A stretch of DNA of 64,000 nucleotides from Ghiorsea bivora (GTDB lineage: Bacteria > Pseudomonadota > Zetaproteobacteria > Mariprofundales > Mariprofundaceae). Positions 13,363-33,500 of this stretch are shown here, piece by piece. Both the position numbers and the translations under genes were made by a program. Within the stretch, counting starts at the first letter, position 1; the number at the start of each line of letters is the position of its first letter. The DNA lies in contig NZ_JQLW01000007.1 in assembly GCF_000744415.1 (NCBI RefSeq), positions 186,001 to 250,000 on the forward strand, in the 5' to 3' direction. The notes below the pieces were generated by a model, which saw nothing but the letters and a program-made list of their open reading frames with translations, was not told the DNA's origin and ran no database searches.

Positions 13363-15462
13363 CTAAGCCCCTGAATACAAATCAGGAAACGCTTGTTGTA
13401 AACGCTCGACCTGCACCCGTAATTGACTGTATAACGAGGCATCGGTAATTGGTAAATGCAATGGTTTACGCATAATAGATTCTGAACCAGGCACATGCGA
13501 ACGGAAACTATCTTGCCATATACCATCGTGTACATGGTCTAAGGGTGTACCTAAATTTTGCATACCACGCACATCTTGATGTTCCTCTGCCAAAAGTGAG
13601 CTTAAACACAAATGTGAGATATGAATTAACATGGTGGACGCTTGTATATCTGGCGGCCAACTTTGTGGGTTTTGCCAGCAAGGAAAATGATGATAATAAA
13701 TAAACCGATGTACTTTTCTCGGTAATTTCCAATGCAATGCCAGCATCATACCTGCATCGATATGACTATAACCCAATACATGCAACTCCGCTGACAATAC
13801 ATCTTCACCAGCATCAATCGCAGCTTTCAGTGCATCAAGCTTGTCCTTTGGTTCGGCATGTAATATCACCAACTTACCAATATCATGTAAAAGACCAAAC
13901 ATGGTTGCTGATTGACTGTCCACCACCTGACTATAATCAGAAAGTGTACTGGCAATCATGGCAATAGCTTGCCCATGGAACCACAACCTACGCACATATT
14001 TAGATGATTTTTTAATGCCCCCAAACTCGGGAATAATTTCACCAAGAATCAAGGCTTCAGCACCACCCATACCTACCCGAGCTAACGCCAGCGCAACATC
14101 AGTCACAGGGTTTGCCCCAGCTGGCAAATAAGCTGCAGAATTACATATTTCCAAAATACTAGCCGTTAAAACAGCATCTTGCGCAATGACCTTGGCTAAA
14201 TCAGCAGGTGAAGACTCAATATCATCAAAAATCGCCTGCACTTGATACCAAACTTCAGGTAAAGGTGGTATTTTAGCAATGGCTTTCCGCAAATGTGTTA
14301 ATGTATCACGACTTAAAGCTGGCGGGTGCCGCATATCAAAGGGTGGTGATTCTGGAGCAGCAGGCGACTCAATAAGAAAAGCACCCAGCAATGTATTGTA
14401 TGAAACTGTATCAGTCATACTCTCTTCTTCTGTTTCTTCTGCTTCAATAAGCGCTGCCGTACTCTCCTCTTGCTCCATCACGGTTTGGTTTAAATCCGAC
14501 AATGTTGAAACACTATTTTCACCATTTTGCATATCAGTTAAATCAATGCTTAATCGCTCAGGTTCACCAAGTTCTTCAATGCGCGACATCACTTCAGCAC
14601 AATCTTTAGGGCGCTGCTGCGGGTCTTTCTGCAATAAATGCATAATCAAATCATCAAGCGCATCAGGGATATTAGGGTTGAGTTTTTTCGGGTGTTCAGC
14701 TTGATGCCGAACTTGTTTTTCCATAATTTCAAACTCACCACCACCCGTGGACATAAAGGGTAAAATCCCCGTTGCCATGCGATACAACACAATACCAAAA
14801 GCATACAAATCTGTGAATGCACCAATCTCTTTGCCCAAAATCTGTTCTGGAGCCATGTATAAATAGGTGCCAACCGTGATACCACTTGCTGTAATATCTT
14901 CATTGCTGGTGGTTGATTTGGCTAACCCAAAATCCATCAGCTGCACTTCACCTTGATCGGTTAAGAAAATATTGGAGGGTTTTAAGTCACGGTGAATGAT
15001 ATTTTGTTGATGGGCAACTTCTAAGGCTGAAAGCACAGCTTGAGCCACATAAATAATTTCGCCCAAAGGTAATTCACCTTTATGAATAACATATTCTTTT
15101 AAGCTACAGCCACGCAACAGCTCCATCACCAGCGCCATCACTTCACCCTCTTCGAGTACATCAATCAGATGAATAATATTCGGATGTTCTAATTTTTCAT
15201 GCAATCGCATTTCACGTTTAAAGCGTTGCATGTGCTGCGTATCACCAAAACTACTGTGATTCAGCAGTTTGATAGCAACTTCTTGATTGATGCCCTCATG
15301 ACGGGCGCGATACACCACGCCCACGCCACCTTGGCCAATTTTCTCAAGCAAGAGGTATTCACCCAAGCGTACTTTGCCATCTTTATTTGATAATAAATCA
15401 CCACATGACAAACAAAAAAGTTTTTGATCAGGATACCAAGTACCACAAGCAGGACATTTCAT
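13363..15462 (-). CDS. zinc-ribbon / Ser-Thr protein kinase / HDOD fusion protein
   Basis: 699 residues with an uncommon architecture. Residues 1-24 hold a zinc ribbon (CxxC at 3-6 and 17-20). Residues about 34-300 are a complete eukaryotic-type Ser/Thr kinase: glycine loop GQGGVG (43-48), VAIK lysine 65, HRDLKPSN (157-164), DFG (177-179) and APE (204-206), so it should be active. An acidic linker (about 310-365) is followed by an HDOD domain (about 390-590: KIPPLPEVWYQV, ICNSAAYLP, FGLLHDIGKLVILH). HDOD domains occur in bacterial signalling and lack dependable catalytic metal ligands. The rest is uncharacterised. Likely a cytoplasmic signalling protein, since no membrane segment follows the kinase. 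The next rightward gene on the same strand is trmO. Confidence 0.9.
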   Translation of the reverse strand: MKCPACGTWYPDQKLFCLSCGDLLSNKDGKVRLGEYLLLEKIGQGGVGVVYRARHEGINQEVAIKLLNHSSFGDTQHMQRFKREMRLHEKLEHPNIIHLIDVLEEGEVMALVMELLRGCSLKEYVIHKGELPLGEIIYVAQAVLSALEVAHQQNIIHRDLKPSNIFLTDQGEVQLMDFGLAKSTTSNEDITASGITVGTYLYMAPEQILGKEIGAFTDLYAFGIVLYRMATGILPFMSTGGGEFEIMEKQVRHQAEHPKKLNPNIPDALDDLIMHLLQKDPQQRPKDCAEVMSRIEELGEPERLSIDLTDMQNGENSVSTLSDLNQTVMEQEESTAALIEAEETEEESMTDTVSYNTLLGAFLIESPAAPESPPFDMRHPPALSRDTLTHLRKAIAKIPPLPEVWYQVQAIFDDIESSPADLAKVIAQDAVLTASILEICNSAAYLPAGANPVTDVALALARVGMGGAEALILGEIIPEFGGIKKSSKYVRRLWFHGQAIAMIASTLSDYSQVVDSQSATMFGLLHDIGKLVILHAEPKDKLDALKAAIDAGEDVLSAELHVLGYSHIDAGMMLALHWKLPRKVHRFIYYHHFPCWQNPQSWPPDIQASTMLIHISHLCLSSLLAEEHQDVRGMQNLGTPLDHVHDGIWQDSFRSHVPGSESIMRKPLHLPITDASLYSQLRVQVERLQQAFPDLYSGA

Positions 15463-23028: not shown

Positions 23029-23586
23029 ATGAAAATATTATGGATGGTTGGGTTAATTTTGGGTTTGGTCACCAATGCACACGCTGTTGAAGTTGAAGAC
23101 GTACAAGTTGCCGATACAGCAAATGTAGGCGAGCAAACATTGGTGCTTAATGGTGCAGGCGTTCGCACCAAGTTTTTCTTCGATATTTACATTGGTGCCT
23201 TGTATTTACCAAGCAAAACACAGTCTGCAGAAACAGCTATCAACAGCAAAACCAACAAACGTGTTTGGATGTATTTTTTATATGATGAAGTCAGCAAAGA
23301 TAAGTTGACCCATGGCTGGACAAAAGGTTTTGAAAAAAACAGCAAAACCAACTTTGCGCAACTACAAGCGAGGCTGAATCAATTTAATAGCTTCTTCCAC
23401 GACATGCAAAAAGGTGATTCTGTGACCTATGATTTTAATACGGATGGTACAACCACGGTCATGATCAATGATAAACAAGTGGGCAGCATTGCAGGAGAAG
23501 ATTTTCAACAGGCTTTGCTCGCCGTTTGGTTGGGCAAAAAACCTGCCGATGGCGACCTCAAAGAAGCTATGTTAGGTGAAGATTAA
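23029..23586 (+). CDS. secreted chalcone-isomerase-fold protein
   Basis: About 185 residues with a cleavable signal peptide ending TNAHA. The rest matches the bacterial chalcone-isomerase-like family: LVLNGAGVRTKFFFDIYIGALYLP, a MYFLYDEVSKDKLTHGWTKGFEKN segment and AGEDFQQALLAVWLGKKPAD. Bacterial members are periplasmic and their ligand is mostly unknown; lipid or fatty acid binding is suggested for the fold. The frame opens at 23008, but the ATG at 23029 follows GGGAG eight bases away and starts the signal peptide cleanly. It overlaps pldA by 11 bases, suggesting an envelope-lipid link. Confidence 0.88.
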   Translation: MKILWMVGLILGLVTNAHAVEVEDVQVADTANVGEQTLVLNGAGVRTKFFFDIYIGALYLPSKTQSAETAINSKTNKRVWMYFLYDEVSKDKLTHGWTKGFEKNSKTNFAQLQARLNQFNSFFHDMQKGDSVTYDFNTDGTTTVMINDKQVGSIAGEDFQQALLAVWLGKKPADGDLKEAMLGED

Positions 23587-24571
23587 ACCTATAAAGTCCC
23601 CTCTTCCGCCCATGCTGTTGTTTAACATCATACTTTTAATACTTTTTATGCCCTTTAGCCATGTTTATGCAGCCGAAAATGGGCGTTTTCATTCTTATAA
23701 GGACAATGAAGTATTGATTGTTCAACAAACATCTGGTGATGAAAAAGCCTTGGCAGGCAATTTCTCCTTTAGGTATGACTTCTTTAATTGCAGCAATAAA
23801 CCAGGGAAGTTTCTAAAACAAACGTTATGCCCCGCTCAAGATGTCGGTGGCATGAATATCTTTGTCAGTTATACAACTGCATTTGATTTTTATATGTATG
23901 AAACAGGCAATGATACTGTGCGCGCATCCAAACCAATTATTAATAGGTTAAACAACCCTGCAATTCATTTTGTTTGGGAAAACACAGACCTTTCACAAGC
24001 CATAGGCTGGTGGGGCATCAGCCTTGAGCATAGGTCCAATGGGCAAGTGATTAGTGCGGATTTAAAAAATGCAGCGGGGCAATACCTAACACAAATTGAA
24101 TACAACCAAAGTAAACATGAATACTTTGATGCCCTAAGTAGATCTGGCAACTACATCACCCTAGCCTTAGGCGGCAAAGGATTTACCGAACAAGGTAAAT
24201 TTTCTGTCAGTTATAAAATCTACGTCCTTCAACAAGACGAAGAAGCATCCATCACATGGGGGCCTCTCGCAGGAACGCCGACAAAATTCAGTGATTTTGA
24301 CCGCATTACCCTTTCCTTCACAGAACGCTTTGATGAGCCTATTTTTAGAAGCGTGTTGGATTCGATTGGCATGGGCTTAGATGTCACAGTCGGCGACAAA
24401 GGTTTAAGCGACGCATCCGTTGATTTGAAAATCACTGTATTATCAGGCTCTAAAAGTGATTCGTGGAGCATCCCTTGGTATCTCAAAATACACAACGGCC
24501 CTATGGAAAGGTTATCCGATTATTCAACACCCTACTATTCACTCGGTTTAGGCATCGATTTTGATTATTAA
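23576..24571 (+). CDS. pldA: outer-membrane phospholipase A (OMPLA-like)
   Basis: 331 residues with an N-terminal signal peptide (hydrophobic run ending VYAAEN) and a beta-barrel C-terminus. The catalytic region reads GISLEHRSNGQ at about 141-151, with the His-x-Ser pair of PldA (HQSNG in E. coli), followed by a SRSGNY element. It hydrolyses acyl chains from phospholipids displaced to the outer leaflet. The barrel ends YSLGLGIDFDY with a terminal aromatic residue, as expected for BAM-dependent insertion. The ATG at 23576 may be preceded functionally by a later start at the inner MLLFNI; either gives a signal peptide. Confidence 0.85.
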   Translation: MKIKPIKSPLPPMLLFNIILLILFMPFSHVYAAENGRFHSYKDNEVLIVQQTSGDEKALAGNFSFRYDFFNCSNKPGKFLKQTLCPAQDVGGMNIFVSYTTAFDFYMYETGNDTVRASKPIINRLNNPAIHFVWENTDLSQAIGWWGISLEHRSNGQVISADLKNAAGQYLTQIEYNQSKHEYFDALSRSGNYITLALGGKGFTEQGKFSVSYKIYVLQQDEEASITWGPLAGTPTKFSDFDRITLSFTERFDEPIFRSVLDSIGMGLDVTVGDKGLSDASVDLKITVLSGSKSDSWSIPWYLKIHNGPMERLSDYSTPYYSLGLGIDFDY

Positions 24572-24659
24572 TCATCGATAACCGCAATGCAACTCACTAA
24601 CTTCTCGTCACGCTCTAAACGTACAACCCACAAAAGATAACAATCATTGATAACAAAGT

Positions 24660-24706
24660 TTGACATAAACCTACAGATTCATAATGATAAGCTCATCAAC
24701 CTTGAT
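24660..24706 (+). promoter_or_regulatory. candidate parDE promoter and operator
   Basis: TTGACA at 24660-24665 is a consensus -35 box, with an AT-rich -10 candidate (AATGAT, 24683-24688, 17-base spacing). ATCAA-CC-TTGAT (24695-24706) is a near-perfect palindrome just before the AAGGAGG ribosome site of parD. That is where ParD antitoxins normally bind to repress their own operon. A 13-base motif AATCATyGATAAC occurs twice further upstream (24570-24582 and 24642-24654). Confidence 0.5.
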
Positions 24707-24721
24707 TAAGGAGGCAATGCC

Positions 24722-24976
24722 ATGAATGTAAGCTTAACCCCTAGCCTAGAACAATATGTGCGCGATTGCGCATCAACCGATGACTACAACAACGCCAGCG
24801 AAGTGGTGCGTGAAGCTATTCGTTTGCATAAGCAACGCGAAGAATATCGGCAAATGAAGCTAGCAAGGCTTAAAGAAGCTTTGCAATCGGGCATTGATGA
24901 TATGGAAAACGGCAACTTTGCTGATTACTCTCTCGATTCTTTTATTGATGAGTTGGATAACAAAGCCAAGGTATGA
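24722..24976 (+). CDS. parD: ParD-family type II antitoxin
   Basis: 84 residues. The N-terminal ribbon-helix-helix (MNVSLTPSLEQYVRD ... NASEVVREAIRL) is the DNA-binding and dimerisation part; the acidic, probably flexible C-terminal half would wrap the toxin. The pattern matches the CC2985/ParD antitoxin family. A strong AAGGAGG ribosome site precedes it, consistent with antitoxin excess. It overlaps the toxin gene by ATGA. Confidence 0.92.
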   Translation: MNVSLTPSLEQYVRDCASTDDYNNASEVVREAIRLHKQREEYRQMKLARLKEALQSGIDDMENGNFADYSLDSFIDELDNKAKV

Positions 24977-25275
24977 GCAGCTTCAAGCTCACGCCTAATG
25001 CCAAAACCAGCTTAACCAACATTGCCCGCTACACCGAACAAGCATGGGGAAAGAAGCAGCGCAATGTTTACCTTAAACAGTTGGATGATTGCTTTCATTT
25101 ACTTGCCAAACATCCTACACAAGGTAAAGAACGCCCAGAAATTAACCCTTCACTTCGTAGCTTTGCGGTTGGTAAACATGTGGTGTTTTATAGCGTAAAA
25201 CCAAACATGGTCATCATTGTAAACATCTTGCATCAACGTATGGATTTTGAGACTCAACTTTCAAGAATTAAGTAA
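24973..25275 (+). CDS. parE: ParE/RelE-family toxin
   Basis: 100 residues of the ParE toxin fold: FKLTPNAKTSLTNIARYTEQAWG, then QLDDCFHLLAKHPTQGKERPEI and SLRSFAVGKHVVFYSV with a C-terminal ILHQRMD. Characterised ParE toxins poison DNA gyrase; RelE-like relatives cut mRNA. The ParD partner and the RxxxxxGKHVVFY region favour ParE. Coupled to the antitoxin by a four-base overlap. No sign of truncation. Confidence 0.92.
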   Translation: MSSFKLTPNAKTSLTNIARYTEQAWGKKQRNVYLKQLDDCFHLLAKHPTQGKERPEINPSLRSFAVGKHVVFYSVKPNMVIIVNILHQRMDFETQLSRIK

Positions 25276-25292
25276 ACTGTCACCGAATTCGC

Positions 25293-25328
25293 ATATATGT
25301 CCCCGATTTTATATATGTTCCCGAATTT
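25293..25328. repeat. two tandem 18-bp repeats
   Basis: ATATATGTCCCCGATTTT (25293-25310) is followed immediately by ATATATGTTCCCGAATTT (25311-25328), differing at two positions. They sit in the 56-base gap between the convergent parE gene and the AlbA_2/TPR gene. This could be a remnant of an insertion-sequence end or a binding site; nothing else in the gap is notable. Confidence 0.5.
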
Positions 25329-25331
25329 CTC

Positions 25332-26537
25332 TCATTTCCATGAAGCAAGGGACTCACTCACTGACCAAATTTCTCTCCATTCACCCGAGTTTATAGCTGC
25401 TAATATGTCCTGCGCAGTTAATCTTTCATTATCTTCTTCCAAATGAATACTTAAAAATTTTTTCAAAAGTTCTTCTGCCCGACCGACTACATGATTCCTA
25501 ACATATATAATAGCTAAACAATAAAGTGCCCCACTAAGAATATCTAAAGAAGAATCATCACAAAACTGAATGCAACGTTCAAAAAACAGAATAGATTTAT
25601 CTTCATTATTGTTTAAATATAGCTTCTCAGCATACCTAAAGTTTAAATATGCATAATCAGGAGCTAAATCAAATGCGCGTTTAAACAATTCTTCTGACTT
25701 CTCAGAATTTTTAAGCCTTGAGAAAAGTACTCCACCTGCTATGCAACAACTTAGGGACTCCTCAACTTTTACAATTTTATTAAACGTAATTTCAGCTAAA
25801 TCATTATCATCTGCATCCATTAGCTCTGTCATTTCAATAAAAAGATTTTTGTGTTCTTCGGAAATATTATGAGAAAGCATCTCTCTATACACACTCACCC
25901 CAAAGCTATTTGTTTGAGAGTAGCCAGATGAACGCATTGGTATGCTTAAAGATGGAATATGGTGACCTTTAAATAAAAGACTTTCAAGTTCCTTTGTAGA
26001 TATATGAACACCAGCCTTTTGCTGAGCTTCTACATAAGCAATTAACTTCCTATATGGGTTAAGACTACCATCTGCATCATGAATAATTTCAGCCAATTCT
26101 ACTCTGTTCGCAATCGCTGTACTAGACCCTCGCCTAACATAGCATTGGCCTTCAAAGTTTTTCTTTAAACGACCATCACTAAACTTCTTAAATAAGTGTG
26201 GCTTCCGAGAGCTATAAGGGATTACAAATTGTAACAGAGAAAATGTTCCTTGTTCGGTAACGTGAGATACTCTCTTTACATTAAACTGAACTGGTGGATC
26301 AAGCATCGAGTTGATAGTTTGTTGAATTTCAGCTTCATCTGGAACTTTATCATAAGAGACGTTATAAAAATCACCTTCTTTTCTACCAATTAAAATAGTG
26401 CTGTTTTTATTTTTTTTTAAAGTTGAATTAGCCATAGCTGCTATATCTTTTGCCATTTCAACTTTTGTTTCGGGAAGCTTATAAAATGACTTTTTACAAT
26501 CAAAAGAAGTACTTTCCTCTTCAGTAAAAATTGACAT
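25332..26537 (-). CDS. AlbA_2 (Schlafen-like) domain and TPR protein
   Basis: About 401 residues. The N-terminal third (to about 160) looks like the AlbA_2/Schlafen-type putative nucleic-acid-binding domain: EESTSFDCKKSFYKL, DIAAMANS, ILIGRKEGDFY and a Q(C)YVRRGSSTAIA strand. The C-terminal half (about 240-380) is helical with TPR-like repeats (AEITFNKIVKVEESLSCCIAGG, EELFKRAFDLAPDYAYLNFRYAEKLY). The start at 26537 follows a GGGGGAAG ribosome site; the upstream ATG at 26549 lacks one. Composition appears more AT-rich than flanking genes. Function unknown; proteins of this type are often accessory and sometimes defence-linked, but nothing here proves that. Confidence 0.72.
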   Translation of the reverse strand: MSIFTEEESTSFDCKKSFYKLPETKVEMAKDIAAMANSTLKKNKNSTILIGRKEGDFYNVSYDKVPDEAEIQQTINSMLDPPVQFNVKRVSHVTEQGTFSLLQFVIPYSSRKPHLFKKFSDGRLKKNFEGQCYVRRGSSTAIANRVELAEIIHDADGSLNPYRKLIAYVEAQQKAGVHISTKELESLLFKGHHIPSLSIPMRSSGYSQTNSFGVSVYREMLSHNISEEHKNLFIEMTELMDADDNDLAEITFNKIVKVEESLSCCIAGGVLFSRLKNSEKSEELFKRAFDLAPDYAYLNFRYAEKLYLNNNEDKSILFFERCIQFCDDSSLDILSGALYCLAIIYVRNHVVGRAEELLKKFLSIHLEEDNERLTAQDILAAINSGEWREIWSVSESLASWK

Positions 26538-26550
26538 TACTTCCCCCATT

Positions 26551-29500
26551 TTAATACCCCAAATTAGGTGCTAACCAACGCTCGGCTTCATCCATACTCA
26601 TACCTTTACGTTTGGCATATTCTTTGACTTGGTCTTTGTTAATTTTACCCACCATGAAATAATGCGATTCAGAGTTGGCAAAGTATAAACCTGATACGGC
26701 TGCAGTTGGTAGCATGGCAAAGGATTCAGTGATTTCCATGCCTATGTTAGTCTCAACATCCAAAAGCTGCCAAAGCGTGCCTTTTTCGGTGTGGTCTGGA
26801 CATGCAGGATAACCCGCTGCAGGGCGAATGCCTTGGTATTTTTCTTTGATGATTTCGTCATTGCTTAATGACTCATCAGCAGCATAACCCCAGTAGTCTG
26901 TACGCACTTGTTTGTGCAGCATTTCAGCCAATGCTTCTGCCAATCGATCTGCCAAAACTTTAATCATAATCGCTGCATAATCATCATGCTCGGCTTCATA
27001 TGCTTTGGCTTTTTCTTCTGCGCCAAAGATAGACACGGCAAATGCACCGATATGGTCATGGGCTTGCTCTGATTTGGAGATGAAATCGCTCAAACAAAGG
27101 TTGGCGCGTTTATCTTTTTTATCCGTTTGTTGGCGTAAGAAATGGAAACGTGTTTTTTCTTTGGTTTTTGCTTCATCTTCATACACAATCACAGTGTCAT
27201 CATCGGTGGCTTGGGCTGGAAACAGTCCAAAAATCGCTTTGGCTGTAAACCAGTCTTCATCAATGATTTTATCCAGCCAAACATTGGCTTCATCAAACAA
27301 CTTCTGTGCTTCTTTGCCTTTGTGTGGGTCATTTAAGATGCGTGGATACGCACCATTAAGCTCCCATGCACCAAAAAATGGCGACCAATCGATATATTCA
27401 CGGATTTCGGCAATGGATAAATCATCCAACACCGTTACACCAAGTTTATTGGGTGCTGCGGCAATCGTAGCCTCATTCAGTGGTGTTGAATTGGCTCGGG
27501 CATCTGCCAAAGACAACCAATCGGTTTGTTTTTGTCTGCCCAAATAACGCTCACGCACGCCAATATATTCTTCACGGATATTTTTCACAAAGTCAGCGCG
27601 GTTTAACTCAGAAATTAAGTTTTGCGCCACGCCAACCGCACGAGATGCATCTTTCACCCACACAATCGGCTCATCGTATTCTGGGAAGATTTTCACGGCT
27701 GTATGCGCTTTGGATGTGGTCGCACCACCCAACATAATTGGTAATTTAAAGTCCAAACGCTTCATTTCTTTGGCGATATGCACCATTTCATCCAAGGATG
27801 GGGTAATCAGACCCGAAAGACCGATAATATCTACGTTGTGTTTCTTGGCTTCTTCCAAAATCGTCGCCGTTGGCACCATCACACCCAAATCAATGACCTC
27901 GAAATTGTTACACTGCAACACAACACCCACGATATTTTTACCAATATCATGTACATCGCCTTTCACTGTTGCCATCAACACTGTGCCGTTGGATGAGTTC
28001 ACACCTTCAGCCTTACCTGCCTCGATATACGGCATCAAATAGGCTACCGCTTTTTTCATTACCCGCGCAGATTTCACCACTTGCGGCAAGAACATTTTAC
28101 CCTCACCAAACAAGTCTCCCACTACATTCATACCATCCATGAGTGGGCCTTCAATCACTTCAATCGGCGCATCAAATGCTTGTCTAGCCTCTTCGGTGTC
28201 TTCAGTAACAAAAGCATCAATGCCTTTGACTAACGCATGTTCCAAGCGCTTGGCAACAGGCAGCTTGCGCCATTCATCATCGGCTTTTTTCGCGACAACA
28301 CCGTCACCCCGGTATTTTTCAGCAATATCCAGTAATTTATCCGTGGCATCAGGATGTTTATTTAAGACCACATCTTCAACAGCATCCCGCAATTCTGTTG
28401 GAATATCTTCATACACTTCCAACATGCCTGCATTTACAATGCCCATGTCCATGCCTTGTTTGATGGCATAATATAAAAACACTGAGTGAATCGCTTCACG
28501 CACAGGGTTGTTGCCCCTAAATGAGAAGGACACATTGGACACACCACCTGAAACCATGGCATGTGATAGATTCTCCTTAATCCAGCCCGTGGCTTCAATG
28601 AAATCTACAGCATAGTTATTATGCTCTTCAATGCCTGTGGCAATGGCGAAGATATTGGGGTCAAAAATAATATCTTCGGGAGGGAAATTACATTTTTCAG
28701 TGAGCACTTTGTACGAGCGTTCACAAATTTCGGTTTTGCGCTTAAAAGTATCGGCTTGCCCATCTTCATCAAACGCCATCACCACAGCTGCCGCACCATA
28801 TTTACGAATCAGCTTAGCTTGGCGGATAAAGTTTTCTTCGCCCTCTTTAAGTGAAATCGAGTTGACCACACCTTTGCCTTGTACGCACTGCAAACCTTCT
28901 TCGATGATTTCCCATTTCGAGCTATCAATCATCACAGGCACTTTAGAAATATCAGGTTCGGATGCAATCAGGTTGAGGAAAGTCCGCATGGCTGCTTTAC
29001 CATCAAGCATGGCTTCATCCATGTTTACATCAATGATTTGTGCGCCATTTTCCACTTGTTCACGGCAAATATCCAAGGCGGTATCATAGTCGCCTTCCAT
29101 CACAAGTCGTTTAAACTTGGCCGAACCCGTCACGTTGGCACGTTCACCCACGTTTACAAACAATGAGTTCTCATCAATATGTAACGGCTCTAAACCTGAT
29201 AAACGGCATTGCACAGGTACATCGGGAATCACGCGCGGAGCAACACCTTCCACAGCTTTTGCCATCGCGCGGATATGCTCAGGGCTAGTACCACAACAAC
29301 CACCAATAATATTTAAAAAGCCAGAACGCGCCCACTCACCAATTTCGGCAGCCATTTCTTCAGGTGTTTCATCATAACCACCCATAGCATTGGGTAAACC
29401 AGCGTTCGGGTGTGCATTGATATAACATGGAGAAGTATTAGATAACTCCTCAATATATTGACGCAATTCGCCTGCACCAAGCGCACAATTCAAACCAATA

Positions 29501-30228
29501 GAAATCGGTTCTGCATGTGCCATAGAGTTATAAAAAGCTGTCGCTGTTTGCCCAGATAATGTACGCCCTGAAGCATCAGTAATGGTGCCTGAAATCATAA
29601 TTGGCAGTTCAATACCAAGCTCTTCAAAAGCTTCTTTAACGGCATAAATCGCGGCTTTGGCATTAAGCACATCAAAGACTGTTTCAATAAGGATAATATC
29701 CGAGCCACCCTCAACAAGTCCTTTGGTGGCAACTTTATAAGTTTCCACAAGCTCCATAAATGTCACATTTCTAAAACCTGGATCATTCACATCAGGTGAA
29801 ATAGATGCTGTACGTGATGTGGGACCAATCACACCCGCTACAAAGCGCGGTTTTTCAGGCGTACTTGCCGCATCACATGCTTCACGCGCTAATTTTGCAC
29901 CCGCTACATTCATTTCATACACCAGTTCTTCCATGCCGTAATCTGCCATGGAAGGTTTGTTGGAGTTAAAGGTGTTGGTTTCAAGAATATCCGCACCTGC
30001 TTCTAAATAAGCCGTGTGAATGTCTTTAATAATTTGCGGCTGGGTTAATGAAAGTAAGTCGTTATTACCTTTAAGCTCAGATGGCCAGTCGGCAAACCGT
30101 TCGCCTCTATAGTCTGCTTCTTCAAGTTTATAAGCTTGAATCATGGTTCCCATCGCGCCATCAAGGAGAAGGATGCGTTGTTGTAACTGTTTAATAATTT
30201 CTATATGTGAAGGGGTAAGTTGTTTCAT
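26551..30228 (-). CDS. metH: cobalamin-dependent methionine synthase
   Basis: The 1225-residue four-module enzyme moving a methyl group from 5-methyltetrahydrofolate via cobalamin to homocysteine. The homocysteine module (about 1-330) has GLNCALG and GGCCGT zinc cysteines. The pterin module (about 350-620) has [14 protein letters not shown]. The cobalamin cap and Rossmann domains (about 655-880) have [11 protein letters not shown] (about 755) with the cobalt-binding histidine. The C-terminal reactivation module has [12 protein letters not shown]. Full length, no lesions. No cobalamin or SAH riboswitch motif was recognised upstream. The AlbA_2 gene follows closely on the same strand. Confidence 0.98.
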
Positions 30229-30498
30229 AAGGGCAAGGTTATCAGTTCTTTAGGCTATTACAAAACTAGATTACACATTAAGCTTTTCTCAAAAGAAAAT
30301 CATATTTTCTTACACATACAACATTTTTACTTTTATTTATATACTAACATTAAAAATCTACAGCCTTGTTAAGCATAAAACAAGCTTGAGAGTACAGAAA
30401 GGGAGAAGAAAATAAGTTATATCGATGCCGTGCCGCACATAAGGCTTAGGTAGCGTGGGCTGAGGCTTTGGTTAATCACTAAGTACACAATAGATAAG
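30229..30498. other. non-coding stretch upstream of metH
   Basis: No convincing protein frame. The part near metH (30240-30370) is very AT-rich and probably holds its promoter. The part at about 30400-30480 is distinctly more GC-rich (GATGCCGTGCCGCACATAAG and onward) and is followed on the plus strand by a strong bidirectional terminator. That layout would suit a small RNA read rightward, or the tail of an unrecognised RNA element. I could not match it to 6S, SRP, RNase P, tmRNA or a known riboswitch. Confidence 0.4.
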
Positions 30499-30536
30499 AC
30501 ATAAAAAAAGACGCCCTAGGGCGTCTTTTTTTATGT
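30499..30536. terminator. 38-bp perfect palindrome, bidirectional intrinsic terminator
   Basis: GACGCCC-TA-GGGCGTC forms a GC-rich stem (30510-30525) flanked by seven A on the left and seven T on the right. The symmetry continues to 30499 and 30536 without a mismatch. It therefore ends transcripts in both directions. On the minus strand it closes the FAD/Fe-S oxidoreductase gene, whose stop is 13 bases away; on the plus strand it would end any transcript from the non-coding stretch before it. Confidence 0.9.
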
Positions 30537-30548
30537 TCTAACCTATAA

Positions 30549-33500
30549 CTACATCAGTACGCGTTCAATACCGCCATCTTTAATACGCTGTACAAATATT
30601 TTCTGCCAATCATCACCATGCAACTGTTTCATCAGTTCCACCACGATATAATCAGCATCCACACCAGAGCTTTCTTCCAAACGTGATAAACCTTGTAAAC
30701 AAGCGGGGCAAGAAGTTAGGATTTTTTGTTGTTCATCACCCAATAAAGCTAGCTTCTCACTGGCTTCTGCCATTTTTTCTTCTTTACGGGCGCGAATCTT
30801 TCCTGAAATCGCAGGATATGCAGCAGCCAATGTACCTGCTTCAGCACAACATTCTTCACTTTCCACAGATTTTTTGTTCAGCAAAGATGAAATCACCATT
30901 TCAGAGCCATGGCGTTTGAGTGGGTTATGGCAAGGTTCATGGTACATATACTGTACACCTTGCACATTATCCACGCTCACCCCTTGCGTCATTAAATATT
31001 CATGAATATCAATCAAAGGTGCATCGGGAAAAATTTCTTCCAAATAATACTTGGTTAACTGATCATAACATGTGCCACATGAAATCACCACGGCTTCAAA
31101 ATCAAGGTAAGACAATGCATTTTTTAAGCGATGGAATAATACGCGATTATCATAAGTAATCTTATCCCCTTGTTCATGATCACCACTTGCTGTGCTTGGG
31201 TAACCGCAACACAAATACGATGGTGGAAGCACCACATTCACACCCAAATCAAAGAGTGCGGCTTGGGTTGCCATGCCCACTTGTGAAAACAAACGTTCCG
31301 AACCACAGCCTGGGAAATAAAACACAGCTCTACCATTAGCTTTATTGGCATCACGTAAAATAGGTATCATATTTTTATCACGCGATTCAATGCCCAAAAT
31401 TTGCCTTGATGTTTTCAGTGGCAAGGTAGGCAATGGGCGCTCCACGAAGTTAATCACTTGAGCTTGGATACCATCCAAGTTACGTGTTGCCGCAGGTTTA
31501 TCTTTAATAACGCCCATCAGTTTCGCTGCTTTGTGCAACCATTGATGACCTTTATAACTCCAACGAATACCTACTTCGCGTACAATCTTGACCAAATCGG
31601 GATTTTGAATGACCAAAAACATCAAAGATAACTTAGAAACAATGTTAAACCGCGCCTGTCCTTTGTCTTTAAGCAAGGCGCGCATTTTTTCAGTGACCAC
31701 ACCAAAATCAATATCCACAGGGCATGGTGCTTCACATTTATGACAAATTGTGCAATGGCTAGCCACATCTTGTAAACCTTCAAACTGCTCAAAAGATATA
31801 CCCGCTCCTGTTTGCGACTCATACAAAAAGGCTTCAATAATCGCACCTGATGCTTGAATCTTATTGCGCGGTGAATACAACATATTGGCGCGTGGAAAGT
31901 GCGTATTACACACTGGTTTACATTTACCACAACGTAAACATGGAGAAATTTCTTCCGAAAGCTCTGTTAAATCTGCAGCTTCCATGATAACAGACTCATG
32001 TTCTAAAAGATTAAAGCTTGGTGTGTAAGTTAAGCTTAAATCCAAACCAGGTTGTAGTTTTCCACGGTTAAACAGGTCTTCAGGGTCTGCGCCCTTCAAA
32101 TAAGCCGCAGTTTCTGACAAAACTTCATCATTTAAATACGCCAACTTGGTAATACCAATACCATGTTCCCCTGAAATCACACCGCCAAGCTCTTCTGCTT
32201 TACGCATGACCTTTTCAACCACATGATGCGCTCTACGCATCATCATATAGTCATTCGAGTTCACTGGAATATTGGTATGAACATTACCATCACCCGCATG
32301 CATATGGGTAGCAACCACGACACGACCAGATAATACTTGCTGGTGAATCGTTTTGATTTTATTTTCTAATGTTTCATTACCACGTAAGTGCTCAAGCAAC
32401 GGTTTTTCAACTTCTTCACGGTATGAAATGCACAAGTCACCACGCTGAATCACACCAAAAACCGTATCGTCTTCCAACAAATCTATATCTGTAAAATATT
32501 GTGCGTAATTGGTTGCAGGCTCTTTTAAACCTTTACATAAATCACACCATTTTTGCCGTGCTTGTTTAATAATCGCCACACAACTATCTAGCTTCTCAGC
32601 CAAATACATATCATCTTCAAGGTTTAATTCTTGGCGAACCAACTGGTCTTCAGAATCTAACGAATCTTTGGTAGTTTCAAAGTATTCCGACAAAGCATCA
32701 ATGATATCAACTTTATTACCAATCGAGTTTTCAATATTAAGAAACTCTACATAATCATTGTATTCGGATAAACGTGGCAATGGAATCACCACATCTTCAT
32801 TCATTTTAAAGGCTCGCGTGTGTTTGGCAATCGCAGCCATACGCCCTCTATCACCCCAGAAACGTCCTCTATCTTCTTTAGAAATCGCCACAAAACCTTC
32901 GCCATTACCCTCAGATGCCAAACGACAAATATCCGAACATGTCTGTGCCACAGCTTTTTCATCATCACCTGACACATCAATCAATAACACCACTTTAGGG
33001 CGTTCGCGACGTGTGGATTTGCTCACATAATTGATGGCTTTAACGTATTTCTCATCAAAATGCTCAAAACCTTCAAGAAATACCGTTTCTTGCGCGTCCA
33101 CATGGTTTTTAATATTTACCAAAGCTTGGGTTGCATCATCTAGTTTTTGTCCAAAAAACTCACAACATACCGTTCGGGTTACATCATAAGCACGGTGCAA
33201 AATAAAGGTGGCTTCAACAATAAAACCATCTGTACCCTCTTTTTGCACACCGGGCAAACCGCCCATGGCTTTGCGTGTCACGTCTTTACCCAAACCCTCT
33301 TTGCGGAAAATATGCCCTGGCAAATCTAGGTTTTCTTCAGATATCACTGTTCCATCAATAGAGGAAGTTTTCGTGATTTTAAAATGTATCAAGGCTTCAT
33401 CATGCAGTTTGCCCATATTATGGTTGATACGTTCCACCAATAACCAATGTCCATCTGGTGTAACCATTTTCCAACTTAATAGGTTATCAACACATGTACC

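What the first reader, a model, noticed from the sequence alone, without database searches (positions are those of the whole stretch)
24570..26537. Toxin-antitoxin pair plus AlbA_2/TPR gene as a small accessory patch
Between conserved pldA and metH lie parD-parE with a consensus promoter and palindrome, a pair of tandem 18-bp repeats, and a convergent AT-rich gene joining a Schlafen-type AlbA_2 domain to TPR repeats. AlbA_2 proteins are frequent in genomic islands and some are linked to phage defence. The proximity to a TA module makes a horizontally acquired defence or stability patch worth considering.
Basis: partly seen in the sequence, partly recalled or inferred. Interest (0 to 1): 0.5.

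Follow-up and report, generated by a model that had tools for sequence, protein, structure and literature searches.

The report
Swapped-in nuclease gene behind metH
Behind a core methionine-synthesis gene this bacterium carries a foreign, AT-rich gene predicted to encode an RNA-cutting (Schlafen-type) enzyme, in a spot where several related species carry other, unrelated predicted nuclease or toxin genes, so the spot looks like a place where such genes are swapped in and out.

Summary
The genes described are there: parD-parE (24722-25275, +), an 18-bp tandem repeat (25293-25328) and a convergent AlbA_2/TPR gene (25332-26537, -). The interpretation must be split. The AlbA_2/TPR gene is an acquired accessory gene: no match in 60 related genomes, GC 0.34 against 0.41-0.47 in neighbouring genes, codon usage beyond all 228 length-matched segments. 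parDE is not part of that unit: normal codon usage, a conserved operator-promoter block, and present on the metH side in five other genomes of the genus with different cargo. 'pldA' is a sub-threshold match and not conserved (3 of 61 genomes). The variable site is the 3' end of metH. It could be read in 10 of 16 genus genomes (11 ends); at 7 of 11 ends the gene starting 1-33 nt after the metH stop, on the same strand, is AlbA_2-TPR, HARE-HTH (2), DUF4365, BrnT (2) or MqsR: five unrelated families that I read as nucleases or toxins. The first half of the AlbA_2 protein has the Schlafen/SAMD9-tRNase fold and acidic residues; its second half matches TPRs, as in none of 84 relatives scanned. Best reading: a translation-blocking RNase with a TPR sensor, expressed by read-through from metH. 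Defence is plausible, not shown.

The parts
24638..24688 (+). Putative parDE operator and promoter: imperfect 15-bp palindrome 24638-24652, TTGACA 24660-24665, AATGAT 24683-24688
   Evidence: Nearly invariant block upstream of parD in six genus genomes; promoter scan; one search found no inverted repeat of 8 or more
24722..24976 (+). parD, RHH-type antitoxin, 84 aa
   Evidence: PF03693 E 2.7e-9; TIGR02606 E 4e-16; PDB ParD relatives
24973..25275 (+). parE, ParE toxin, 100 aa, overlaps parD by 4 nt
   Evidence: PF05016 E 4.4e-20; PDB 7r5a E 1.4e-22
25286..25286 (.). Right end of homology to the G009 parDE copy, 11 nt after the parE stop
   Evidence: blastn alignment 24637-25286, 89%
25293..25328 (.). 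Two 18-bp tandem repeats in the parE to AlbA_2 spacer
   Evidence: TRF, shuffles, genome pattern search
25332..26537 (-). AlbA_2/TPR gene, 401 aa: predicted Schlafen-type nuclease half (about 1-157) and helical TPR-like half (about 207-399); alternative start 26549
   Evidence: PF04326, alignment of 85, AF2 model, fold matches, composition, absence in relatives, TPR only here among 85
26551..30228 (-). metH; its stop codon (26551-26553) is the edge of the variable slot
   Evidence: Pfam; blastn to relatives ends at 26549-26555 in 13 of the 15 loci that run past the metH end (the other two, L058 and L060, stop earlier inside metH)
23576..24571 (+). pldA-like outer-membrane phospholipase candidate, left neighbour, not conserved
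   Evidence: PLA1 sub-threshold; 3 of 61 genomes

Best explanation
A resident ParDE toxin-antitoxin module and a separately acquired AlbA_2/TPR gene share a variable site at the 3' end of metH. The acquired gene most likely makes a Schlafen/SAMD9-type RNase (probably cutting tRNA or rRNA) kept quiet by its TPR half until a trigger, perhaps a phage protein or complex, binds; it would then stop translation and growth. It starts 13 nt behind the metH stop on the same strand and would be expressed by read-through from metH. In several related species the same slot holds other predicted nuclease or toxin genes in the same orientation. Shown: gene identities, foreign composition, absence in relatives, slot variability, fold match and acidic residues. 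Inferred: RNase activity, TPR sensing, read-through, defence role, mode of insertion.
For: Absence: match in 1 of 61 genomes, 15 of the others in the same genus. Composition: GC 0.339, GC3 0.235, codon distance 0.404; 0 of 228 length-matched segments of 43 other window genes as extreme. Slot: metH 3' end readable in 10 of 16 genus genomes; 8 of 11 ends have a same-strand ORF of 60 aa or more starting 1-33 nt after the stop, of five families read as nuclease/toxin in 7 of 11; in another genus (G016) an Eco47II-type restriction nuclease and a C5 methylase follow metH. Partial control: 31 of 34 neighbouring gene-pair comparisons in five genus genomes keep orientation and spacing within 300 nt. 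Nuclease: E8 in 84, D13 in 83, K15 in 84 of 85; position 54 E or D in 80 of 85; fold match to 3lmm Z 11.3 (rmsd 2.7, 128 aligned) and the SAMD9 tRNase domain 9o0d Z 9.5 (rmsd 4.0, 148 aligned). SLFN13 needs E205/E210 and D248 (PMC5862951, passages). Schlafen-linked systems are described as antiphage modules that cut tRNA (PMC12839542, passages).
Against: No PADLOC hit. None of 84 relatives scanned has a TPR match, so no conserved architecture vouches for the fusion; TPR matches here are below Pfam cut-offs and the model is moderate (pLDDT 76, pTM 0.52). Foldseek gives no match at E 0.001 or better; helical Z values are weak evidence. No integrase or transposase was recognised between pldA and metH. 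Three of 11 metH ends lack the same-strand pattern. The metH 5' side varies too: its window neighbour is kept in 6 of 8 genus genomes read and missing in G001 and G006, and shifted by 2.5 kb in G008.
Confidence: 0.6

Rival explanations
1. A neutral, short-lived passenger: metH lies at a rearrangement breakpoint and any DNA lands behind it; the nuclease content is coincidence.
For: Here mfd-chalcone-pldA lie to the left, in G003, G014 and (one gene further) G009 secB; the metH 5' neighbour is also lost in G001 and G006; non-nuclease genes (DUF2809/VanZ-like in G012, a membrane protein in G005) also occur; no control for the nuclease content of other variable sites was run.
Against: Seven of 11 ends have genes of five families read as nuclease/toxin on the metH strand; the AlbA_2 frame is intact over 401 codons.
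Confidence: 0.28
2. The AlbA_2 domain is only a DNA/RNA-binding module and the protein is a regulator or adaptor, not a nuclease.
For: AlbA_2 was described as putatively DNA-binding (PMC5445408, passages); the structure hit 7ksp is the SAMD9 domain bound to DNA, Z 9.4.
Against: The acidic positions expected of the SLFN active site are almost invariant in 85 sequences, which binding alone would not require.
Confidence: 0.2
3. parDE and the AlbA_2 gene were acquired together as one stability or defence patch.
For: They are adjacent and convergent; TA modules and RNases often cluster in defence islands (general knowledge).
Against: parDE is present on the metH side in five other genus genomes without the AlbA_2 gene, has normal codon usage, and its homology to G009 stops 11 nt after parE.
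Confidence: 0.1

Closest known systems
Schlafen (SLFN13-type) tRNA/rRNA endoribonuclease and bacterial SLFN_AlbA_2 proteins
   Same: SLFN_AlbA_2 domain over the Pfam cut-off; E8 and D13 five apart like E205/E210; third acid about 40 residues on
   Different: One AlbA_2 lobe, not a pseudo-dimer; TPR-like second half where 84 relatives scanned show no TPR match
SAMD9/SAMD9L (AlbA_2, SIR2-like, STAND NTPase, TPR, OB)
   Same: AlbA_2 fold match (9o0d, Z 9.5) and TPR-like repeats further on
   Different: 401 aa, no SIR2-like, NTPase or OB domain found; works like at most, not a member
ParDE type II toxin-antitoxin modules (PDB 7r5a, 7b22)
   Same: Antitoxin-first, overlapping genes, ParD and ParE families
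   Different: Nothing unusual seen
Islands at gene 3' ends and defence hot spots
   Same: Variable cargo behind a conserved gene; partial copy of the metH 3' end in G014 and on contig C288 of G005
   Different: No integrase recognised here, cargo of about 1-3 kb; the two literature searches on metH as such a site gave nothing on point

Membership tests
ParDE type II TA | ParD/RHH antitoxin gene directly before a ParE toxin gene | tested here: met
ParDE type II TA | Autoregulatory operator upstream | tested here: inconclusive
   Conserved block with imperfect palindrome; no inverted repeat of 8 or more by tool
ParDE type II TA | Toxicity of ParE neutralised by ParD | not testable with these tools
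   needs an expression test
SLFN_AlbA_2 / Schlafen-type RNase | Domain over the curated cut-off | tested here: met
   45.3 bits against 25.3
SLFN_AlbA_2 / Schlafen-type RNase | Three acidic active-site residues | tested here: met
   E8, D13, E54 by alignment of 85; the match of E54 to D248 of SLFN13 is by position and inference
SLFN_AlbA_2 / Schlafen-type RNase | AlbA_2/SLFN fold | tested here: met
   VIA Z 11.3 to 3lmm, 9.5 to 9o0d; Foldseek alone weak
SLFN_AlbA_2 / Schlafen-type RNase | RNA cleavage | not testable with these tools
   needs an enzyme assay
SAMD9 family | SIR2-like, STAND NTPase and OB domains | tested here: not met
   None of these among the 11 Pfam matches to E 10 in 401 aa
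Known anti-phage defence system | Match to a PADLOC model | tested here: not met
   0 families at E 0.1 for four proteins
Integrative genomic island | Integrase and direct-repeat ends | tested here: inconclusive
   No second metH 3' end in the own genome; partial copies only in G014 and G005:C288; no integrase seen among ORFs of 21-31 kb by reading, not all scanned

The most novel reading that the evidence does not exclude
The 3' end of metH is a dedicated capture slot for growth-stopping nucleases in this genus, selected because read-through from metH ties their level to methionine/SAM status: a phage that lowers SAM (as phages with SAM-degrading enzymes do, recalled) would raise metH transcription and with it the downstream nuclease, so the slot acts as a swappable metabolic tripwire.
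Probability: 0.06. Interest if true: 0.8.

Novelty: new variant of a known kind. Interest (0 to 1): 0.4.

Why it matters
If right, a housekeeping gene marks a small, easily found cargo site where a genus swaps nucleases and toxins, so reading metH 3' ends would yield new candidate defence genes; and a Schlafen-type nuclease joined to TPR repeats is a compact bacterial counterpart to the SAMD9 layout (AlbA_2 effector plus TPR array). The TA pair itself is ordinary.

Tried and rejected
Known families: no PADLOC hit for the four proteins of the locus; the only NCBIfam hit of the AlbA_2 protein is far below its cut-off (PA2171 family, 15.8 against 190 bits); no Rfam family at gathering score in 24000-31000, so no known riboswitch in front of metH.

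Relatives: no match of the AlbA_2 protein in 50,697 phage records at E 0.001; 6 plasmid records match its first half or little more. A single-sequence scan of genome contigs found none; the allowed second scan with alignment A1 found 91, 80 kept, and viral contigs gave 10.

Neighbourhoods of the AlbA_2 relatives: 148 of 159 neighbour proteins were scanned (neighbours over 1100 aa had been left out before). Restriction methyltransferase, Gabija, Qat and Shos-like matches occur, and four phage-integrase matches; no family recurs in more than 4 of 148 (first 25 families listed by count). No control set was run, so no enrichment is claimed.

Mobile-element reading of the 18-bp repeat: a related motif (CTGTCMCCGAWTTT, one mismatch) has 62 sites in 16 genus genomes against 36 for the reversed control, and 3 against 2 in this genome. 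Some sites lie near transposase-like ORFs in G004 and G010 (by reading), but for this window it stays a lead. Its first part, CTGTCACCGA, is shared parDE_A 3' flank.

The gene-pair control counts a pair only when both genes lie on the same fetched stretch, so pairs torn apart are missed; 34 comparisons, one of them metH itself with its 5' neighbour. Contig ends near the metH 3' end were considered as a sign of repeats and dropped: by eye not clearly above what fragmentation gives.

Full report
What is there. The window lies in a 2.15 Mb genome (contig C7). Between a pldA-like gene (23576-24571) and metH (26551-30228, -) are parD (24722-24976, +), parE (24973-25275, +) and a minus-strand gene of 401 codons (25332-26537; alternative start 26549). 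ParD and ParE are over their Pfam cut-offs, and ParE resembles the solved toxin 7r5a over most of its length (E 1.4e-22). The minus-strand protein has SLFN_AlbA_2 (45.3 bits, cut-off 25.3) and sub-threshold TPR matches. metH is a B12-dependent methionine synthase. The 18-bp tandem repeat is real, not matched in 300 shuffles or 1142 window tiles, and unique in the genome at up to one mismatch.

What is foreign and what is not. The AlbA_2 gene has GC 0.339 and GC3 0.235; none of 228 length-matched segments from 43 other window genes is as low in GC or GC3 or as far in codon usage. parD and parE are ordinary by the same measure (14% and 22% of segments as far or farther). A search of 61 genomes (own, 15 of the genus, 21 more of the family, 24 more distant) finds the protein only in its own. 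A spread of 398 genomes of the phylum gives six others with partial matches: two to the first half and four to the repeat half. Other AlbA_2-domain proteins do occur in the genus (5 of 16 genomes including this one), but none of the genus genomes matches this protein at E 0.001.

The flanks. The left neighbour is not a conserved pldA: PLA1 scores E 0.0033 here and 0.00035 in the best relative, below the cut-off, and the gene is in 3 of 61 genomes. In G011 the order mfd, chalcone-isomerase-like, pldA-like is kept, with homology to 24586; homology of the parDE block begins at 24637-24638 in G003, G005 and G009. So the left junction lies in about 50 nt of intergenic DNA. On that side of parDE G003 and G014 have secB, and G009 a methyltransferase gene and then secB.

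The metH 3' slot. Of 16 genus genomes, the metH 3' flank could be read in ten (G000, G002, G003, G005, G006, G008, G009, G012, G013, G014), with a second metH end on contig C288 of G005, a genome listed at 6% contamination: 11 ends. In six (G001, G004, G007, G010, G011, G015) the hits and stretches that I had do not reach it. Immediately behind metH, on the same strand: AlbA_2-TPR in G000; a HARE-HTH protein in G009 and G013 (82% identical); a DUF4365 protein in G003 (E 1.1e-22; PADLOC Aga restriction-nuclease model E 9.2e-12); BrnT in G014 (E 5.4e-26) and its relative in G005:C288 (89%); MqsR followed by MqsA in G008 (E 1.9e-8 and 1.2e-17); a DUF2809/VanZ-like gene in G012. The starts lie 1-33 nt after the stop (here 1 nt for the longest frame, 13 nt for the preferred start). 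G005:C320 has a convergent small membrane protein overlapping the metH stop with a weak PADLOC match (Hydrolase-TM, E 0.00029), and G002 and G006 have convergent short frames 9 and 133 nt away. In G013 a DUF4389 gene lies beyond the HARE gene and an integrase-core (transposase-type) remnant; the G002 frame next to metH resembles it by reading, though Pfam gave no match for that 80-aa piece. I read G002 as a candidate empty site. HARE-HTH is below the Pfam cut-off (20.6 and 16.4 bits against 25.9), its nuclease nature is my reading of an E-x-K motif plus the family description, and PDB gave nothing. That DUF4365 is a nuclease rests on the PADLOC match and recall.

Is the slot unusual? In five genus genomes, 31 of 34 testable neighbouring gene pairs around the window keep orientation and spacing within 300 nt; pairs torn apart are missed by that count. 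The three exceptions include the metH 5' side in G008 (2843 nt against 320). The 5' neighbour of metH in the window is kept in 6 of 8 genus genomes read (G003, G005, G008, G010, G012, G014) and not found in G001 (about 8 kb read) or G006 (about 17 kb read), so metH is not a quiet neighbourhood on either side. Outside the genus I read eight genomes by eye and no 3' neighbour recurs. One of them, G016, has an Eco47II-type restriction nuclease (E 2.9e-85) and a C5 DNA methylase (E 9.3e-88) there, 195 nt behind metH on its strand.

parDE as a resident. parDE lies between the cargo and the outer flank in G000, G003, G005, G008, G009 and G014, as two allele groups (about 61% ParD, 40% ParE identity) and a more distant copy in G008. 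A block upstream, AATCATTGATAACAA..TTTGACATA, is nearly invariant in all six and looks like an operator with a -35 box. G009 has the allele group of the window (ParD 93%, ParE 91%), but HARE-HTH in place of AlbA_2; homology stops 11 nt after parE and resumes at the metH stop. The two genes in the finding therefore have separate histories.

Traces of how DNA enters. In G014 a second piece of the metH 3' end (100 nt; 34 codons, 85% identical to the window protein) sits beyond brnTA; G005:C288 has the same arrangement with the same 619-nt offset. It is not a recent copy of the neighbouring metH end: it differs at several positions. In G005:C320 the last 35 codons of DUF6172 are repeated beyond an inserted small gene, G013 has the last 43 codons of a ccdB, and G010:C201 two parE 3' parts. 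Leftover gene 3' ends suggest additive recombination using gene ends as homology, or integration at gene ends. The own genome has no second metH end, so for this insertion the mode is unknown.

How the AlbA_2 protein may work. In 88 of 90 public loci a relative with the first half was found (91 genome hits, 80 kept, plus 10 viral); 71 of 88 are 370-430 aa. In 85 aligned first halves (84 relatives of at least 250 aa plus this one; four shorter frames dropped), E8 is kept in 84, D13 in 83, K15 in 84, and position 54 is E or D in 80. SLFN13 needs two glutamates five apart and an aspartate 38 further on (PMC5862951, passages); SAMD9L has an equivalent triad (PMC11221667, passages). The model (pLDDT 76, pTM 0.52; first half mostly over 85) matches the bacterial protein 3lmm (Z 11.3) and the SAMD9 tRNase domain 9o0d (Z 9.5); the second half matches helical repeat proteins, many of them TPRs. 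A profile search links the first half to CbCash, 9ylu (E 1.3e-4); no paper in the library holds that name. The second half (residues 156-401) matches none of 2977 ORFs in the 90 loci at E 10, and in a Pfam scan of the 85 proteins all have SLFN_AlbA_2 but only this one has a TPR match: it has exchanged the family's usual second half for repeats. SAMD9 proteins also combine AlbA_2 with TPRs (PMC5445408, passages). A passage in a study of BREX systems describes Schlafen-linked prokaryotic systems as antiphage modules that cut tRNA and cites a 2025 preprint on bacterial Schlafens, which I have not seen (PMC12839542, passages). Hence the proposal: an RNase half restrained by a repeat half that senses a partner, expressed with metH. 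The steps after fold and residues are inference.

Verdict. The small accessory patch exists but is one acquired gene beside a resident TA pair; the surprising part is the slot behind metH, which the coordinates only touched. Two literature searches for metH as an insertion or integration site returned nothing on point: 15 of 34 listings seen, where 'metH' also matched unrelated words, and one unrelated paper. The genus is unnamed by the tools and I do not name it.

Noticed in passing
L046:3980-4079 and L265:5531-5630: Partial second copy of the metH 3' end beyond a brnTA pair, same 619-nt offset in two contigs; in L046 the sequence has diverged from the adjacent metH end.
   Followed up: partly
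L044:2380-2484: Last 35 codons of a DUF6172 gene repeated beyond an inserted small membrane-protein gene, with inverted copies of CTGTCCCCGATTTT at 2276 and 2367.
   Followed up: partly
L263:2604-4608 and L050:1007-1333: G013 has HARE-HTH plus integrase-core and ccdB remnants between metH and a DUF4389 gene; G002 has metH next to a frame that resembles that gene: candidate occupied and empty site.
   Followed up: partly
window 24638-24688 and five relatives: parDE operator-promoter block stays nearly invariant across two allele groups whose toxins are about 40% identical.
   Followed up: yes
L268:300-642: Two different parE 3' ends in one 3.5 kb contig of G010, both followed by the same AATTAAGTAAACTGTCACCGATTTT.
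   Followed up: no
L060:3843-5907 (G016): An Eco47II-type restriction nuclease and a C5 DNA methylase follow metH in another genus of the family.
   Followed up: partly
L054:3-1229; window 14881-15342: A leucine-rich-repeat/kinase-like gene (by reading) lies near pldA in G011; the window has a 27% match to its later part.
   Followed up: no
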